From Alicyclobacillus mali NBRC 102425 (GTDB lineage: Bacteria > Bacillota > Bacilli > Alicyclobacillales > Alicyclobacillaceae): a DNA stretch of 64,000 bases. The stretch is from positions 33,497-97,496 of the forward strand of contig NZ_BCSG01000019.1 of NCBI RefSeq assembly GCF_001570745.1, in the 5' to 3' direction. Of the stretch, positions 30,931-42,955 are shown one piece after another. Made by a program: the position numbers and the translations under genes. The notes under the pieces are model-generated. The model was not told the DNA's origin. It saw nothing but the letters and a program-made list of their open reading frames with translations, and did not search any database. Position 1 is the stretch's first letter; the number at the start of each line of letters is the position of its first letter.

Positions 30931-31474
30931 CGCCTATCCCTCCCTGCTCGGCCAGCGCCCGTTCGAGCAACTGACGCCCTCGGTGCAGCCTCGTCCTCAC
31001 CGTCTGATCTCGGATCCCGAGGACTTCGGCGACCTCATGCGTCGTGAGATCGTTTCCGTAATACAGTTCCATCACCTCGCGATACGTTTCCGGTAGCGCC
31101 CGAATGGCTCGCCAGACGGCGTCACGAGCCAGTTTGTCCGCGACCACGTCGGCGGGATCGGACGGCTCGACTTGCCGCGCAAACGCCTCGCCCTCGTCGG
31201 CGAGCTCGCGCCGCTCGGCGCCGGATCGCAAAACGTCACGCGCGCGATTGGCCGTGATGGACAGAAGCCATGTCTTGATGGACGAGTGGCCCTGAAAGTC
31301 TCCGTAGTGCTGCCATGCGCGCAGGAACACGTCCTGGGCGATATCTTCAGCTTTGTGAAAGTTGTGGACGTACGAGTATGCCAGACGGATCACGTCACCG
31401 CCATACAATTCCATCCATTCAGCGAGCGGCGGCGCGTCCTCCGCCGGCGTGTCGTTGCGACGCGCGTGCCTCAT
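30917..31474 (-). CDS. ECF RNA polymerase sigma factor
   Basis: A 185-residue extracytoplasmic-function sigma factor. Region 2 is visible as AEDIAQDVFLRAW (about 42-54) and region 4 as TTHEVAEVLGIRDQTVRTRLHRGRQLL (about 148-174). Start ATG 31474 follows GGGGTAGAGGG. It overlaps the putative anti-sigma gene, so the pair is likely coregulated. No recognisable ECF autoregulatory promoter was found upstream. The target genes and the inducing stress are unknown. Confidence 0.88.
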   Translation of the reverse strand: MRHARRNDTPAEDAPPLAEWMELYGGDVIRLAYSYVHNFHKAEDIAQDVFLRAWQHYGDFQGHSSIKTWLLSITANRARDVLRSGAERRELADEGEAFARQVEPSDPADVVADKLARDAVWRAIRALPETYREVMELYYGNDLTTHEVAEVLGIRDQTVRTRLHRGRQLLERALAEQGGIGVDQA

Positions 31475-37801: not shown

Positions 37802-38500
37802 ATGAGCGTGATCGTGCTGCATTTGGGCGACTCCATCGCGTACGGAGAATGCGCGTCTCAGCCCGCGCGCGCCTACCCGCAGGTGGCGGCGCAAGCGGTG
37901 GCTGCCGAGATGCGCGCGCAGGTGGAAACGCGTGTCGTGGCGCGGCCCGGATGGACAAGTGCGGATCTCGCGGCAGCGGTGGCGTCGGACAACGCGGCGC
38001 TCACGCGCGCCGACGTGGCCGCCGTCCTCGTCGGCGGAGACGACCTGATTCAAGCCGCCCTCGCCTCGCGCTCGCAGGCTCACTTACGCCGGCACCTTCG
38101 CGCCGCCTACCGCCGCTACGCGATCGACCTCGCGTTCATCGCGGCCGCCTGTCGGCAAGCAGGCGCACCCATCGTACTTTGCACCCTGTACAATCCCTTT
38201 CCGCACGCTCCCCTCGCCACGTCCGCCATCCGTGGCCTCAACAGCGTGATTGGTCAAGTGGCGAGCCGCCTTCGCGCACCCGTCGCGCCAGTGGACGCGT
38301 GGTTCGCGGGCCGAGAGGCGCTCCTCATCTCGGGCTACCGCACGGGAACGCTGAGGGACGTGCTCGACGGCCGCGCTCCCGTACATCCCAACGATCTCGG
38401 CCACCGGCTCATCGGCCTGGGACTGGCCGGGTACATCTCACCCCTGGCGGCGATGCGACATAGGCTAGGAAGCACGGCCGTTTGGCACAGTCGGAGGTGA
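37802..38500 (+). CDS. SGNH/GDSL-family hydrolase
   Basis: A 232-residue protein with LHLGDSIAYGE (catalytic Ser, block I) near the N-terminus and PVHPNDLGHRLIG near the C-terminus, where the Asp/His pair of SGNH esterases lies. The Asn block is less clear. No signal peptide is visible, so the protein is probably cytoplasmic. ATG 37802 is close to its AAGGAG site; GTG 37808 has better spacing. Its stop lies inside the ribosome binding site of sigK, so it may be cotranscribed with that gene. Confidence 0.75.
   Translation: MSVIVLHLGDSIAYGECASQPARAYPQVAAQAVAAEMRAQVETRVVARPGWTSADLAAAVASDNAALTRADVAAVLVGGDDLIQAALASRSQAHLRRHLRAAYRRYAIDLAFIAAACRQAGAPIVLCTLYNPFPHAPLATSAIRGLNSVIGQVASRLRAPVAPVDAWFAGREALLISGYRTGTLRDVLDGRAPVHPNDLGHRLIGLGLAGYISPLAAMRHRLGSTAVWHSRR
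38440..38467 (+). promoter_or_regulatory. Sigma-K-type promoter candidate for sigK
   Basis: AC at 38440-38441 and CATAGGCTA at 38459-38467 with 17 bases between fit the sigma-K pattern AC-N17-CATAnnnTA. It lies inside the 3' end of the SGNH gene, about 40 bases before the sigK start. Autoregulation by sigma-K is known in B. subtilis; here it is inferred from the match. Confidence 0.45.
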
Positions 38501-38507
38501 ATCCCCG

Positions 38508-38705
38508 TTGTTCAAGCTGTCCCTGCTCTCCGGATCGGCCGACGACTTTGTGCTGGCGTCGAGCTTTGCCAGCCAGTCGTTTCCGCAACCGCTGTCCAAG
38601 GAGGACGAGGCAAAATACTTTGAACTCTGGCGAAAGTACCGTGACAAGCAGGCGCACGACATCCTCGTCGAGCACAACCTCCGCCTGGTCGCTCACGTCG
38701 CCAAG
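38508..38705 (+). CDS. sigK: sigK 5' part: RNA polymerase sigma-K precursor, N-terminal segment (interrupted)
   Basis: The first 66 codons of sigma-K, the late mother-cell sigma factor. TTG 38508 follows GGAGGTGA. After a short pro-region of about 20-25 residues come FPQPLSKEDEAKYFELWRKY and the region 2 start VEHNLRLVAHVAK, very close to B. subtilis sigma-K. At codon 66 the frame leaves sigma-K homology and continues as unrelated sequence, because a 2,444-bp element begins here. Joining to 41147 restores a 243-residue protein, close to the 241 residues known for B. subtilis. Confidence 0.9.
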
Positions 38706-38720
38706 GTGTCGTCGACGCCG
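38690..38720. other. Left attachment junction of the sigK element
   Basis: The shared AAG is at 38703-38705, after sigK codon 65. The element side carries TGTCGTCGAC at 38707-38716, one arm of the proposed attP dyad. Confidence 0.7.
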
Positions 38721-40234
38721 AAACTTGGATCGGCGCGCACGCGTGCCACGAGGGTGAGCACCACCTCGTCTCCCGAAGCGTCGATCTCCACGCGCGACAC
38801 CAGGGCCTCGAGCCACATCCGTCTGAGTTCGACGCCAGCGTCTACCTCGAGCGCCTTCCACAGCTCCTCATGTGCGTTCCATCTGCGCTGTCGCGCGTGA
38901 CACAGTCGACACGCCTCGTCGCGCCCGGCGCGCAGGCGGCGCATCTCCTCGGACATGGCGCGCAGGGCCTCGCTTCGCTCGAGGTGACCGCGCAGATACA
39001 GTTCCCGCGCGCGATCCCGCCGTTCCACAGCCGCACGAAGCTCTCGCCGCAGGCGTGCCGCATCCTCGTCCAGCGGATGGCCTTCGTTCAAATCCCCGGC
39101 GAAATGCGGTCCGAATCCCCACGCCCGCGCGCGCCGCACCAGTTCTCGCCACACCGCCTCCTCCACCTCGCAGGCAGACACGCGCCCGCATGCATACGGG
39201 CAGGACGCTGCGCCCCGCTCCGCCGGTGGCCGCCGAAACTTGCGCACCATCCCGCTCGCCGTCCGACATGCCTCGTGGCGCCACGCGCGTTGACAGTGGG
39301 CGCAAACGAGCTTCCCCGACAAAAACGTATGTCGAGACGCCGAGCCGCGCGGCGCCTCAGAGCGCTTGCGAAGCGCGACCAAGCGCGCGAGCTCAGCATC
39401 CACCACGGCTGGCACAGGCACGCCAATCCATTCGCTGGGATCGCGTACGGACACCACCTGTCGCCCTCGGCCGCGGAGTAGCCCCTTGGAACCGCGCCGT
39501 TCCCGTTTTCGCGTGCGCCGCCGATTGTAATACCAGATGCCTTGGTAAAGTGGGTTGTCGAGAATCCGCGCCACGGTACTCGGGTGCCAGCGCGCTGACC
39601 GGCGCGTCTTTGTCGGTACGCCCATCGCGTCGAGCCGATCCGCGATGGCGCGAAGGCTCATGTGCTCGAACGCGTACCAGCGGTAGATCAGCCGGACAAT
39701 CTCGGCCTCCTCCGGGACGACGGCGTATCGACCGCCCTCGTATCGATAGCCGTAGGGATCGACGCCGGACGGCATCACCTTGCCGTCGCGAACCGCCCTC
39801 AGTTTGCCGGCCAGCGTCCGCCTGCGGATCTGACGCAACTCGTATTCGGCGATGCTCGAGATGACGTGAAACAGAAGCACGGCCTCGTCGGACTCATCCC
39901 AGTTGGGCACGTCCACGAAGTGGAGCTTCACGCCGCAAGCGGACAACTCCCTCACCACGATGGCCTTATCTGCCACGTTGCGCGAAAGGCGGTCAGGGTG
40001 CTTCACAACGACGCGATCGACAAGCCCGCGCCGGACGTCGTCGAGGAGTCGCAGGAGCTCTGGCCGATCCATGTCCTCGCCCGATCCGCCCGCCTCCTCG
40101 TAGATGCGGATGTCGCAGAGAGGCACACCGAGGGCCCCCGCGTACTGCACGCACGCCTCCCGCTGGACATCGAGGCCGTGCCCTGACTGCGCCTGGTGTT
40201 CGGTCGACACGCGCGTGTAGACGGCGGTCCACAT
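38693..40234 (-). CDS. Large serine recombinase (SpoIVCA-like)
   Basis: A 513-residue large serine recombinase. The N-terminal catalytic domain has YTRVSTEHQ (catalytic serine) and HPDRLSRN. A recombinase domain (PYGYRYEGGRYAVVPEEAEI), a zinc ribbon (CAHC ... CPYAC) and a basic coiled-coil region follow. It most likely excises the surrounding element to restore sigK, as SpoIVCA does for skin in B. subtilis. ATG 40234 or GTG 40237 follows GGAGG. Its last three codons and stop (38693-38704) lie in or beyond the junction and come from sigK DNA; the stop is lost on excision. Confidence 0.9.
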   Translation of the reverse strand: MWTAVYTRVSTEHQAQSGHGLDVQREACVQYAGALGVPLCDIRIYEEAGGSGEDMDRPELLRLLDDVRRGLVDRVVVKHPDRLSRNVADKAIVVRELSACGVKLHFVDVPNWDESDEAVLLFHVISSIAEYELRQIRRRTLAGKLRAVRDGKVMPSGVDPYGYRYEGGRYAVVPEEAEIVRLIYRWYAFEHMSLRAIADRLDAMGVPTKTRRSARWHPSTVARILDNPLYQGIWYYNRRRTRKRERRGSKGLLRGRGRQVVSVRDPSEWIGVPVPAVVDAELARLVALRKRSEAPRGSASRHTFLSGKLVCAHCQRAWRHEACRTASGMVRKFRRPPAERGAASCPYACGRVSACEVEEAVWRELVRRARAWGFGPHFAGDLNEGHPLDEDAARLRRELRAAVERRDRARELYLRGHLERSEALRAMSEEMRRLRAGRDEACRLCHARQRRWNAHEELWKALEVDAGVELRRMWLEALVSRVEIDASGDEVVLTLVARVRADPSFGVDDTLAT

Positions 40235-40467
40235 CACGATCCGGCCTCCGCCGTTCTGCCGCCAGCGGATGATTCCGCGCGTTGGTGGGCCAGCGCGACA
40301 GACGTCCGGGCCCAAAGTCGCGCAATCTCGGCGGAACATGGCGCTGTGGCGTCACCCTGCTGCACAAGCCAAATCACGCGAACAGGCCGCTGCACGAAGA
40401 ACACCCCCCATTCGCATGTATGCGAATGGAGAGATGTCCTACGACAGCGGCCTGTCGGAGCGGCGAA
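40235..40467. other. Intergenic region between dedA and the recombinase gene
   Basis: 233 bases that must carry the recombinase promoter. Besides the nested inverted repeat, no good SigA promoter was found on the minus strand. CATACAT (minus strand, inside the inner palindrome) resembles a sigma-E -10, but no matching -35 was seen. Confidence 0.4.
40382..40455. repeat. Concentric nested inverted repeats inside the sigK element
   Basis: The outer arms ACAGGCCGCTG (40382-40392) and CAGCGGCCTGT (40445-40455) and the inner arms CCATTCGCAT (40408-40417) and ATGCGAATGG (40420-40429) share the same centre (40418.5). Both are perfect. It lies between dedA and the recombinase gene; it could be a terminator, an operator or a structured RNA. 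No T-tract follows. Confidence 0.75.
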
Positions 40468-41100
40468 TCAGCGCTCGGCGCGATCTCGTTTCGCATCCGG
40501 GGCCGACCCGTGCAACTTCTTGCGCTCCCACCTGCGAAACGCAAGGAAGAGCGCGACAAGGACGGCGACGAGGATGGCGGCCAGCCACAGGTGATGCTTC
40601 AGGAACGGCCAGTAGCGGGCGACTTCCTCACCAATATACTTTCCGGCAATGATGAAGGCGCCCGACCACACGACGGCGGCGATCGTGTTCACGGTGAAAA
40701 ACTTCGCCGGATGCATGCGGTTGATGCCCGCCAGATACGGCACGATGATGCGCACGCCGGCGATGAACTTGGCGATGAAGATGACGGCCAACTCGTATCG
40801 CTGGAATCGCTCGTTGACCCTGTCGAGCTTCTCGTCCGTGATCCCGACGTACTTGCCGAAGTACAACACCACCGGGCGCCCCAGAAACCAGCCGATCAAA
40901 AACGCCACGGCGGAGCCGACGAGGTTGCCGAGGCACCCCATCAGCCAAAGAGGAACCAGGTGGAACACGCCCTTGGACCACTCGATCCCGGCGAGTGTCA
41001 GCGTCGTCTCAGCAGGAAACGGGAATCCAATGGCCTCGACGAAGATGATGAAAAAGACGCCCGCATAGCCGTAGTGCTGAATGATCTCCTGGAAATGCAC
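40468..41100 (-). CDS. DedA-family membrane protein carried as cargo
   Basis: A 210-residue DedA / VTT-domain membrane protein. Characteristic segments are IIFVEAIGFPFPAETTL near the N-terminus, GWFLGRPVVLYFGKYVGI and AKFIAGVRIIVPYLAGINRM. DedA proteins are linked to lipid carrier recycling, membrane potential and envelope integrity. The chosen start is GTG 41100 with GGAGG seven bases upstream. An in-frame ATG at 41145, two bases inside the right junction, extends the frame. Only about 45 bases of element lie upstream, so any promoter must be antisense in sigK or come from the circular form. Confidence 0.85.
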   Translation of the reverse strand: MHFQEIIQHYGYAGVFFIIFVEAIGFPFPAETTLTLAGIEWSKGVFHLVPLWLMGCLGNLVGSAVAFLIGWFLGRPVVLYFGKYVGITDEKLDRVNERFQRYELAVIFIAKFIAGVRIIVPYLAGINRMHPAKFFTVNTIAAVVWSGAFIIAGKYIGEEVARYWPFLKHHLWLAAILVAVLVALFLAFRRWERKKLHGSAPDAKRDRAER

Positions 41101-41129
41101 GCATTCGCCTCCACGATGGCCCAACCGCA

Positions 41130-41160
41130 GCGATGTCGATGACATGAAGAAGTTTGATAC
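41130..41160. other. Right attachment junction of the sigK element
   Basis: The shared AAG is at 41147-41149, followed by the sigK codon AAG (Lys) and TTT. The element side carries GTCGATGACA at 41135-41144, the second arm of the proposed attP dyad. Confidence 0.7.
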
Positions 41161-41683
41161 GTCCGGGATCGATCAGGACGACCTGATTTCCATCGGCACG
41201 GTCGGCTTGATTAAAGCTGTGGACACGTATCAGCCGTCCAAAGGGACCAAATTCGCGACCTATGCCGCGCGTTGCATCCAAAACGAGATTCTGATGCAAC
41301 TGCGCGCCCAGCGCAAATCGCGCAAGGACGTGTCACTGTACAGCCCCATCGGGACGGATAAGGAAGGCAACGAGATCACCATCGGCGACATCCTCTTCTC
41401 CGAGAGCGACTCGACCGAAGACGAGGTATCCCGCCGGATGGAACTGAACACGATGCGCCAGTTGCTCGACGTCCTCGACGAGCGCGAGCGCAAGGTGATT
41501 GAACTCCGGTTCGGCCTCGCCGACGGGCGCGAGTGGACCCAGAACGAGGTAGCCGACTCGCTCGACATCTCGCGTTCCTACGTGTCCCGGCTGGAAAAGC
41601 GGGCGCTGCTCAAGATGTTTCATCAGTCGCACGTCGCCAAGGAACGCAAGCAGGCCATCCGCGAGGCTCGCCTTCAGCCGTAG
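41147..41683 (+). CDS. sigK: sigK 3' part: sigma-K C-terminal segment (interrupted)
   Basis: 178 codons plus stop. After KKFDTSGIDQDDLISIGTVG it carries the rest of region 2 (YAARCIQNEILMQLRAQRK), region 3 (DVSLYSPIGTDKEGNEI) and region 4 (ISRSYVSRLEKRALLKMF). It continues exactly from codon 65 of the 5' part. It has no start or ribosome site of its own at the junction, so it should be silent until the element is removed. The stop at 41681-41683 precedes a 13-bp inverted repeat. Confidence 0.92.
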   Translation, partial: KKFDTSGIDQDDLISIGTVGLIKAVDTYQPSKGTKFATYAARCIQNEILMQLRAQRKSRKDVSLYSPIGTDKEGNEITIGDILFSESDSTEDEVSRRMELNTMRQLLDVLDERERKVIELRFGLADGREWTQNEVADSLDISRSYVSRLEKRALLKMFHQSHVAKERKQAIREARLQP

Positions 41684-41705
41684 TACCAGCCGTAAAGACG
41701 AGCCG

Positions 41706-41745
41706 CGTGGCCGTCCGGTTCAAGGATTCTGTCCGGACGGCCACG
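41706..41745. terminator. Hairpin between sigK and the HtrA gene
   Basis: CGTGGCCGTCCGG (41706-41718) and CCGGACGGCCACG (41733-41745) form a perfect 13-bp stem. It lies between convergent genes, with the HtrA stop in the loop. It is not followed by a long T-tract, so termination is likely but not certain. Confidence 0.6.
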
Positions 41746-42955
41746 TCCCGAGCGTGACGCGCACGTGCAACGTCTTCCCGCCGCGCAGCACCGTCAGGAC
41801 GACGGTCTGCCCCGGTTCGTCCTGGTTGATGTACTGCGTCAACTGCTCAATACTCGACACGGATTTGCCGTCGATCCCGACGATGATGTCGCCGTTGCCC
41901 TTCAACGCGGCGTACGGATTCGCCGATTCGCTGAGGCTGTTCAGCTTGGCCGCGTTGGAATCCCCGCGCAGCCCCGCCTTTGCCGCAGGGCCTCCTTGCG
42001 TCACTTCTGTCACGTACACGCCCGAAGACACCGGCAGATTCAGCGCCTGCTGCATCAGGCTGTCGATGTCCATGCCCTCAATGCCGAGCCACGCGTGTGC
42101 AACCGGCTTCCCAGCGAGCAACTCCGGCTCGAGCTGAATGAATCGGTCGATGGGGATGGCAAATCCGATGCCGATGGATCCTTCGATCGGACTCTCAATC
42201 AGCGTGTTGATGCCCACCACCTGACCGGCCGCGTTCAGGAGCGGCCCGCCCGAATTGCCCGGGTTAAGCGGCGCATCCGTCTGGATCATTCCGTTCATCA
42301 CGTGCCCGCTCGACTCCGACATCGATCGGTTGAGTCCGCTCACGATGCCCGAGCTCACACTGGACGTGAGTTCGAACGGATTGCCGATAGCTATCACCAA
42401 ATTGCCGGGCTGGAGAGACTTCACCGTTCCGAGCGGCAATGGCTGCAGCGATTTGGGCGCAGGGATGCGCACGATGGCGAGATCGTCGAGCTGATCCGCA
42501 TCGATCACGCGCCCCACAAACTGGCGGTTGTCGCCGGACACCTCGACCGTGGTGGCCGAGCCCACGACGTGCGCGTTGGTCAGGAGATCCCCGTTGTGGT
42601 CGATCAGAAAGCCGGTGCCGATATCCTCTTCCGCATCGCTCGACGTCGGCTTGCCACCGGACACAGCGGTGATGGTGAAGATGCTGTTTTTCACTCGATT
42701 GTAAATCTCGGTCACAATGGTCGTGCCATCAACGCCCGGAATGGGCGTAAGGGTCCCGGATGTGCTCGTGGTGTTGCCCGTTTGAGGAGGAACGTACTCC
42801 ACGGTCGTCTGCGAGCGACCGCGCGTGAGCGCCGCGCCCGTCCAGATGCCGAGGATGTAGAAGACGGCGACGAGCGCAGTCCCGCCCGCGAGCCACACGC
42901 CCCAACGCCTGTTCTCGCTCGGCCAGTCCTCGTACTCCCAACGTCGACGCCGCAT
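41720..42955 (-). CDS. HtrA-like serine protease with PDZ domain
   Basis: A 411-residue membrane-anchored S1C protease for envelope protein quality control. It has an N-terminal basic region, one membrane segment (about 20-42) and a trypsin-like domain with the triad in TNAHVVG, DDLAIV and PGNSGGPLLN. The PDZ domain (about 300-400) holds DIIVGIDGKSVSSIEQL. Two ATGs six bases apart compete (42961 and 42955). The second is better spaced from AAGGAGG. A good SigA-type promoter lies at 42992-43020. Confidence 0.9.
   Translation of the reverse strand: MRRRRWEYEDWPSENRRWGVWLAGGTALVAVFYILGIWTGAALTRGRSQTTVEYVPPQTGNTTSTSGTLTPIPGVDGTTIVTEIYNRVKNSIFTITAVSGGKPTSSDAEEDIGTGFLIDHNGDLLTNAHVVGSATTVEVSGDNRQFVGRVIDADQLDDLAIVRIPAPKSLQPLPLGTVKSLQPGNLVIAIGNPFELTSSVSSGIVSGLNRSMSESSGHVMNGMIQTDAPLNPGNSGGPLLNAAGQVVGINTLIESPIEGSIGIGFAIPIDRFIQLEPELLAGKPVAHAWLGIEGMDIDSLMQQALNLPVSSGVYVTEVTQGGPAAKAGLRGDSNAAKLNSLSESANPYAALKGNGDIIVGIDGKSVSSIEQLTQYINQDEPGQTVVLTVLRGGKTLHVRVTLGTWPSGQNP

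What the first reader, a model, noticed from the sequence alone, without database searches (positions are those of the whole stretch)
38508..41683. Compact 2.44-kb element interrupting sigK: a minimal skin-like developmental switch
sigK is split after codon 65. Both halves are otherwise complete, and precise removal at the shared AAG gives a 243-residue sigma-K. The element holds just a serine recombinase and a DedA gene, far smaller than the B. subtilis skin (about 48 kb). The split point (VAHVA/KKF) also differs from B. subtilis, where to my knowledge it lies around codon 112, so this is probably an independent insertion. Excision in the mother cell would gate late sporulation.
Basis: partly seen in the sequence, partly recalled or inferred. 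Interest (0 to 1): 0.95.

Follow-up and report, generated by a model that had tools for sequence, protein, structure and literature searches.

The report
Self-excising cassette in second sigma-K gene
In this Alicyclobacillus-type bacterium a 2.4-kb DNA cassette carrying a recombinase gene and a dedA membrane-protein gene splits a second copy of the late-sporulation sigma-K gene, and it is predicted to cut itself out in the spore's mother cell and so rebuild the gene; the ordinary sigma-K gene is intact elsewhere in the genome.

Summary
The split is real: 2,444 bp (38703-41146) interrupt codon 66 of a sigK-type gene, and joining at the shared AA restores 243 codons. It is not the main sigK: an intact canonical sigK lies at C18:84977-85648, and the interrupted gene is an old paralogue, sigK2, seen across the family. 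The cassette is genus-wide: 14 of 15 genomes carry it in the same gene order; the 15th has a contig break at the crossover and no element in its assembly. Gene trees fit one insertion and vertical descent. Recombinase, dedA and sigK2 are under purifying selection. My model: transcripts reading in from outside fold and stay silent; only a mother-cell promoter at the loop makes the excision proteins. On the excised circle dedA would lie behind that promoter. Excision, the hairpin's function and the dedA switch are inferred. New variant of a known kind (skin-like elements); recombinase-plus-small-ORF elements in Clostridia sigK genes are smaller still (about 1.75 kb).

The parts
38439..38467 (+). 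sigK2 promoter-like site: CACC ... CATAGGCTA, sigma-K type (consensus recalled)
   Evidence: CACC and ACATAGGCTAGG invariant at constant spacing in 14 of 14 element-bearing genomes
38493..38499 (+). ribosome binding site GGAGGTG of sigK2
   Evidence: invariant in 14 of 14
38508..38702 (+). sigK2 exon 1, 65 codons, TTG start
38690..38716 (.). attL; crossover dinucleotide AA at 38703-38704 (inferred)
38693..40234 (-). large serine recombinase, 513 aa; Y6, R8, S10 invariant in 14; last codons run across attL into exon 1
   Evidence: dN/dS 0.10-0.20 in ten pairs; best PDB match SP-beta YokA
40234..40395 (-). 53-aa ORF, GTG start, TGA overlaps recombinase ATG: candidate recombination directionality factor
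   Evidence: an ORF in the same place in 14 of 14; hypothetical proteins of several Alicyclobacillus match it
40381..40456 (-). long hairpin whose right arm covers ribosome site and start codon of the small ORF
   Evidence: present in 14 of 14; arms covary
40419..40441 (-). promoter-like block TAGGACA-N11-GCATA: SpoIIID-like box and sigma-E/K-like -10 (consensus recalled)
   Evidence: only match in the 2.79-Mb genome; GAC and GCATA invariant in 14, TAGGACA in 12 of 14 rows
40468..41100 (-). dedA, 210 aa, VTT domain, GTG start 46 nt from attR
   Evidence: dN/dS 0.03-0.12
41133..41160 (.). attR; crossover dinucleotide AA at 41147-41148 (inferred)
41147..41683 (+). sigK2 exon 2, 178 codons and stop

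Best explanation
A 2,444-bp cassette with a serine recombinase and a dedA gene interrupts codon 66 of sigK2, a second sigma-K-type gene, and the recombinase with a predicted small partner protein would likely cut it out in the sporulating mother cell, restoring a 243-residue sigma factor. Shown by sequence: the two exons, the near-palindromic ends around a shared AA, the recombinase, a small ORF overlapping its start, dedA, and an intact canonical sigK elsewhere. Inferred: the small ORF is the directionality factor. Inferred: a promoter at the hairpin's loop (TAGGACA-N11-GCATA) is read in the mother cell by sigma-E with SpoIIID; its transcript starts after the left arm, so the ribosome site is open, while a transcript reading in from outside folds and stays silent. 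Inferred: the sigK2 promoter is read by a sigma-K-type polymerase, so sigK2 acts at or after the canonical sigma-K step. Inferred: on the excised circle dedA lies directly behind the recombinase, so the event that rebuilds sigK2 also puts dedA under the mother-cell promoter. Inferred: the cassette entered once in the genus ancestor and has been kept as host equipment.
For: Same element, site and gene order in 14 of 15 genus genomes, 2,439-2,643 bp. Over 13 genomes the recombinase and dedA trees share 8 and 9 of 10 splits with the canonical SigK tree; no SigK split with support 0.9 or more is missing from the recombinase tree, one recombinase split (0.907) is missing from SigK's. The ten split sigK2 rows in the tree form one clade, sister to an uninterrupted genus. 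Purifying selection in ten pairs: recombinase dN/dS 0.10-0.20, dedA 0.03-0.12, sigK2 exon pieces 0.00-0.08. Left and right ends match better within a species (9.36 of 12) than across (8.27); permutation p 0.0006 of 20,000. G012: contigs C39 and C44 end and begin at the crossover, abut to read the empty site, and the element's recombinase is missing from the assembly. Hairpin: own arms mean -41.0 kcal/mol, between clades -27.0; of 720 pairings over six clade representatives the true one is best. TAGGACA lies within 350 nt upstream of the recombinase in 10 of 16 relatives with sigK pieces nearby against 1 of 50 others. SpoIIID gene present. Precedents: B. subtilis skr overlaps the 5' end of spoIVCA (PMC6957869, passages); the C. 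difficile factor gene CD1234 depends on sigma-E and SpoIIID and has a start site 14 bp before its start codon (PMC5025042, passages).
Against: No excision product has been seen. G012 can also be read as a strain that lost the element, or as an assembly accident with the small contig dropped; its leading CC also fits an attR like those of L046, L051 and L056. The small ORF shows weak coding constraint (dN/dS 0.26-0.88; changes by codon position 136/111/169); 2 of 14 lack any standard start codon and 1 would need ATT; it has no detectable kinship with the Clostridia small ORFs. The -35 region does not match a sigma-E site as I recall it. The looser SpoIIID consensus that I recall also occurs in 9 of 50 control loci, and the TAGGACA count was made after I had seen the motif. 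A CATAnnnTA also lies upstream of 16 of 38 rows labelled canonical sigK and 10 of 23 rows labelled other sigK2, so the sigma-K reading of the sigK2 promoter is not specific. The att test is not corrected for relatedness. dedA could have a promoter inside exon 2. RNAalifold on the plain MAFFT alignment found only 5 pairs, probably because bulges shift the arms.
Confidence: 0.8

Rival explanations
1. The cassette is a selfish remnant of a phage or integrative element that merely sits in a spare sigma gene; excision is incidental and sigK2 does little.
For: Canonical sigK is intact, so interruption of sigK2 need not be lethal; different recombinase elements interrupt sigK2 at other codons in other genomes; G012 may have lost the element.
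Against: sigK2 exon pieces show dN/dS 0.00-0.08, and dedA (0.03-0.12) is conserved more strongly than the recombinase (0.10-0.20); 14 of 15 genomes keep the element, with tree agreement. A dead gene or hopping element would not be expected to show this.
Confidence: 0.12
2. The hairpin is not a translation lock but a transcription terminator for dedA or a DNA operator for a repressor.
For: The mechanical scan lists the window's inner stem as terminator-like, though 1 was found against 2.7 expected in shuffles. Inverted repeats are also common operators.
Against: The T-rich stretch lies inside the right arm, not after the whole stem. The folded segments contain 3-8 G-U pairs out of 28-36, which RNA tolerates and a DNA palindrome does not. 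At least four of the first six bases of the G-run are paired in each of the 14.
Confidence: 0.35
3. One reading: a minimal skin that gates the main sigma-K step.
For: The restored protein is a full SigK-type sigma factor.
Against: An intact canonical SigK is encoded at C18; the interrupted copy falls in a separate, fully supported paralogue clade.
Confidence: 0.07

Closest known systems
B. subtilis skin element (sigK; spoIVCA, skr)
   Same: Serine recombinase and small directionality factor overlapping its 5' end; excision restores a split sigma-K gene; sigma-E/SpoIIID control reported (PMC6957869 and PMC5025042, passages)
   Different: 48 kb, prophage-like, in sigK itself; here 2.4 kb, no phage genes, in a second paralogue at codon 66, with dedA and a start-hiding hairpin
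C. difficile skin-Cd (CD1231, CD1234)
   Same: Recombinase plus small factor; factor gene dependent on sigma-E and SpoIIID, start site 14 bp before its start codon (PMC5025042, passages)
   Different: 19 genes, constitutive recombinase, inserted at another site than B. subtilis skin; codon not looked up
gin element in gerE of B. cereus ATCC10987 (GirC, GirX)
   Same: Non-prophage sporulation-gene element; predicted AA crossover; 42-aa factor with no conserved motif (PMC5595907, passages)
   Different: Different gene, three recombinases, restriction genes; found in some strains only
Alicyclobacillus phage MMB025 prophage in sigK of A. acidoterrestris
   Same: Same genus, sigK interruption, SpoIVCA-type integrase (PMC13141910, abstract and passages)
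   Different: 105-kb infectious phage, presumably the one in the canonical sigK of G004; that genome also carries the small sigK2 element
Compact recombinase + small-ORF elements in Clostridia sigK (L116, L118, L119, L123)
   Same: Nearest recombinases outside the genus; TAGGACA upstream; small ORF overlapping the recombinase start
   Different: About 1.75 kb, no dedA found, best upstream folds weaker (-17.8 to -22.3 against -38.9 to -56.9 kcal/mol), site near codon 112
IS10/Tn10 fold-back inhibition (recalled, no paper read)
   Same: Read-through transcript folds and hides the start of the recombination gene
   Different: Transposase, not developmental excision

Membership tests
sigK-intervening (skin-like) element | DNA inserted inside a sigK coding sequence whose removal restores the frame | tested here: met
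   the gene is the SigK2 paralogue
sigK-intervening (skin-like) element | Encodes a large serine recombinase | tested here: met
sigK-intervening (skin-like) element | Encodes a directionality factor needed for excision | tested here: inconclusive
   an ORF in 14 of 14, but weak coding constraint and no known relative
sigK-intervening (skin-like) element | Excision in the mother cell during sporulation | not testable with these tools
   only indirect: G012 contig ends
prophage-like skin | Phage structural or replication genes | tested here: not met
   recombinase, small ORF and dedA fill the 2,444 bp; of the proteins scanned, the recombinase alone matched an integration family
canonical SigK | Belongs to the canonical SigK clade of the family | tested here: not met
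   two SigK clades in the family, 100/99 and 100/100; the window gene is in the second
DedA family | VTT domain over cut-off | tested here: met
   65 bits, cut-off 33.9; UptA model 88.2 bits against a cut-off of 250, so not a called UptA
fold-back inhibition module | Inverted repeat pairing upstream DNA with ribosome site and start, promoter inside | tested here: inconclusive
   pairing and covariation met; promoter position and translation effect not tested

The most novel reading that the evidence does not exclude
A whole bacterial genus runs a fifth sporulation sigma factor, sigma-K2, through a domesticated DNA switch. One excision, locked by an RNA hairpin against any transcript but the mother cell's own, makes two genes at once: sigK2 on the chromosome and a mother-cell dedA operon on the circle, perhaps to recycle lipid carrier for cortex synthesis.
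Probability: 0.3. Interest if true: 0.88.

Novelty: new variant of a known kind. Interest (0 to 1): 0.72.

Why it matters
Split sporulation genes are usually seen as phage accidents that differ between strains. Here a stripped-down cassette has stayed in one gene through a genus, with its recombinase, cargo and control region all conserved. That is a natural experiment on how a mobile element becomes a developmental part. It also points to a little-noticed second sigma-K gene in this order, and offers a small, self-contained, hairpin-bearing excision module that can be tested in B. subtilis.

Tried and rejected
In-frame recombinase-DedA fusion on the excised circle: true for the window, L047 and L054 only (3 of 14), so not a general mechanism.

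Known RDF families for the small ORF: six of the 14 tested; only chance-level hits in Pfam and PHROGs up to E = 1 (best 0.057). No profile match to the Clostridia small ORFs.

Rfam: no match in 38000-42200 at E <= 1. RNAalifold on the MAFFT alignment gave a 5-pair stem only; replaced by arm-swap energies.

The same hairpin in other sigK elements: in nine Clostridia or other Bacillota loci and two family loci (L061, L063) the best fold in 300 nt upstream of the recombinase was -17.8 to -29.9 kcal/mol, against -38.9 to -56.9 for the five genus elements in the same scan (base composition not matched). The script picked up none of the codon-143 recombinases, so those were not tested.

Sigma-70 promoter in 38300-41800: 0 found, 0.6 expected.

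Print search: no paper on a DedA/recombinase element of Alicyclobacillus sporulation, none on an interrupted sigK there other than phage MMB025, and none on a second sigK in Alicyclobacillus by title in the listings (15 of 161 and 11 of 11 papers listed). The library holds open-licence papers only.

Labels: my pattern mislabelled K1_G021_L073 (is K2), K2full_G025_L022 (is K1) and K1_G000_L103 (SigE-like); placed by the tree. Two long-branch rows are cut pieces (L096, L100). The K2 plus second-family join (95/78) was flagged as possibly false, and the bootstrap had not fully settled. Left out of the tree: the four three-piece sigK2 genes and the sigK2 of G012.

of 73 loci outside L108-L114, seven (L167, L168, L177, L182, L184, L185, L187) had no recombinase start found and were dropped, leaving 66. 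L132, near uninterrupted sigma genes only, was put with the 50; L128, L130 and L181 show only a C-terminal piece but were put with the 16. L115, the single hit among the 50, lies on the same contig as L117, which holds a sigK piece. In one search the script's own counter for exact TAGGACA was misaligned and printed 0; the 14 printed rows show 12.
Full report
OBSERVATION. The window lies in a 2.79-Mb genome of 85 contigs (G000; window = C19:33497-97496). Exon 1 (38508-38702) and exon 2 (41147-41683) match adjoining parts of the SigK model. A shared AA lies at 38703-38704 and 41147-41148. Joining there gives ...CACGTCGCC-AA-GAAGTTT..., reading HVAKKF, and a 243-residue protein. The interrupting DNA is 2,444 bp and is coded on the opposite strand: dedA, a small ORF, then a 513-residue serine recombinase whose last codons cross attL.

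NOT THE MAIN sigK. The SigK model finds three strong places in the genome: an intact gene at C18:84977-85648 (324.9 bits, cut-off 298.65), a SigE-like gene on C20 (267.3), and the split gene. In a 41-genome family survey most genomes have two SigK-type genes. A tree of 110 protein rows puts them in two clades, canonical SigK (39 rows, 100/99) and SigK2 (31 rows, 100/100); a second family of the order also has two copies, of which one set joins SigK2 with 95/78, a join the tool flags as possibly a long-branch effect. The window gene belongs to SigK2. Canonical sigK is itself interrupted in G004, where the pieces lie about 105 kb apart; its 4,222,202-base contig is named A. acidoterrestris, so this is presumably phage MMB025 (PMC13141910, abstract and passages). 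In G026 canonical sigK lies in two pieces on two contigs.

A GENUS-WIDE CASSETTE. Of 15 genomes in the genus, 14 have the element at the same codon with dedA and recombinase in the same order, 2,439-2,643 bp long. The 15th, G012, is discussed below. SigK2 is uninterrupted in 19 of 41 family genomes, including the two of the genus nearest by SigK2, so one insertion in the genus ancestor is the simplest reading. Trees of recombinase, dedA and canonical SigK over 13 genomes share 8 to 9 of 10 splits. In G004, G007, G008 and G013 a further element splits the same sigK2 near codon 143, so those genes are in three pieces.

SELECTION. In ten close pairs dN/dS is 0.10-0.20 for the recombinase, 0.03-0.12 for dedA, and 0.00-0.08 for the sigK2 exon pieces used (78 and 40 codons); one exon-1 pair had no changes. 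Y6, R8 and S10 of the recombinase are invariant in 14. The dedA cargo is thus kept more strictly than the recombinase.

ENDS. With AA as crossover, the element ends form an inverted repeat: perfect over 12 bp each side in L054 and L059, 9.36 of 12 on average. Left and right ends of one species match better than swapped ones (8.27; permutation p 0.0006 of 20,000, not corrected for relatedness). An AA crossover was also inferred for gin (PMC5595907, passages).

A POSSIBLE TRACE OF EXCISION. In G012, contig C39 ends at its last base (26,855) with ...CACGTCG and contig C44 begins with CCAAGAAGTTC. Side by side they read the predicted empty site, without overlap; the element's DNA and recombinase are not in the assembly (best other recombinase 31% identical). 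Either the culture held both forms and the assembler broke there, or this strain has lost the element. The leading CC does not decide, since attR of L046, L051 and L056 also has CC. In G035 two contigs overlap by exactly 77 bases at about codon 111 of sigK2, a position that other elements use.

THE SMALL ORF. Directly before the recombinase all 14 elements have an ORF of 51-72 residues that begins (x)xR(P/L)xxV and overlaps the recombinase start, as I chose it, by 1-65 nt. Eleven of 14 have an ATG or GTG start; L051 would need ATT; L052 and L053 have none. Coding constraint is weak. Known directionality factors are small and varied: GirX has 42 residues and no conserved motif (PMC5595907, passages); skr of B. 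subtilis has 64 and overlaps spoIVCA (PMC6957869, passages). Position makes it the best candidate here.

HAIRPIN AND PROMOTER. About 110 bases around the small ORF's start fold into a long stem in all 14; in the window the main stem runs 40381-40456. Seven were tested against shuffles: z -3.1 to -6.9, with 0, 0, 0, 1, 2, 0 and 0 of 200 shuffles as stable. The right arm holds the G-rich ribosome site and the start codon; the left arm lies upstream. Own-arm duplexes average -41.0 kcal/mol, arms swapped between clades -27.0, and of all 720 pairings of six clade representatives the true one is the best. So the pairing is kept through sequence change. At the loop end sits GCATA, 11 bases after (T)AGGACA, which reads TAGGACA in 12 of 14, TTGGACG in L046 and TAAGACA in L051. 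TAGGACA-N11-GCRTA occurs once in the whole genome. TAGGACA also lies upstream of recombinases in 10 of 16 loci of other bacteria with sigK pieces nearby, against 1 of 50 without, and before the codon-111 element of G040; upstream folds there are much weaker. That argues for a bound protein rather than pairing alone. It resembles the SpoIIID site as I recall it (that looser consensus also hits 9 of 50 controls), and SpoIIID is encoded here. A transcript starting just after GCATA would have a leader of about 15 bases and lack the left arm; the mapped leader of the C. difficile factor gene is 14 bases (PMC5025042, passages). Read-through RNA would be locked. The lock is inferred.

ORDER OF EVENTS. 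sigK2 is preceded by an invariant CACC ... CATAGGCTA in 14 of 14, a sigma-K-type promoter as I recall the consensus, though CATAnnnTA is also seen before many canonical sigK genes (16 of 38 rows) and 10 of 23 other sigK2 rows. So sigK2 is probably read when canonical sigma-K (or sigma-K2 itself) is active. In the chromosome dedA starts 45-64 bases from attR, with exon 2 behind it; no sigma-70 promoter was found. In the circle the recombinase, whose stop lies -31 to +10 bases from attL, would be followed at once by dedA. Hence the proposed double switch. The genome has three other VTT-domain proteins, so this dedA is not the only one. A role in cortex lipid recycling is a guess from family knowledge.

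OTHER COMPACT ELEMENTS. The nearest recombinases outside the genus (38% or less among the 80 best of 336 loci) often lie among sigK pieces. In L116, L118, L119 and L123 (Thermacetogenium, Syntrophaceticus and Syntrophomonadaceae records) the gap between sigK matches is 1,752-1,766 bp and holds a recombinase; a small ORF ends 19 bases past the recombinase motif in each. So the window's element is not the smallest. PMC5025042 (passages) called skin elements an exception in clostridia.

VERDICT. A real, compact, skin-like element, but in a second sigma-K gene and apparently domesticated across a genus. Excision is likely (0.8); the hairpin lock about even; the dedA switch less sure.

Noticed in passing
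L116, L118, L119, L123: Clostridia records with sigK split by about 1.75 kb holding a serine recombinase and an overlapping small ORF (GG(D/N)G ... AF ... L motif).
   Followed up: partly
L049, L052, L053, L058: sigK2 in three pieces: the codon-66 cassette plus a second recombinase element near codon 143; two excisions would be needed.
   Followed up: partly
G004 (L062, L063) and G026 (L093, L094): Canonical sigK in two pieces near codon 112; about 105 kb apart in G004, on different contigs in G026.
   Followed up: partly
L098 and L099 (G035): Contigs overlap by exactly 77 bases at about codon 111 of sigK2, as if the assembly graph branches at a recombination site.
   Followed up: partly
L115 and L117: Two related recombinases a few kb apart on one Clostridia contig, both preceded by TAGGACAAAC, near a sigK piece.
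   Followed up: no
L244 (G012 contig C39 end): Exon 1 of sigK2 reads VERNLRLV where the window has VEHNLRLV, an odd change in a conserved stretch.
   Followed up: no
window 38693-38704: The recombinase's last codons are the antisense of sigK2 exon 1, so excision changes its C-terminus in the window; in 3 of 14 species the circle reads in frame into dedA.
   Followed up: yes
window 31220-31411, minus strand: Another sigma-70 region 2 protein (189-aa frame) lies in the window.
   Followed up: no
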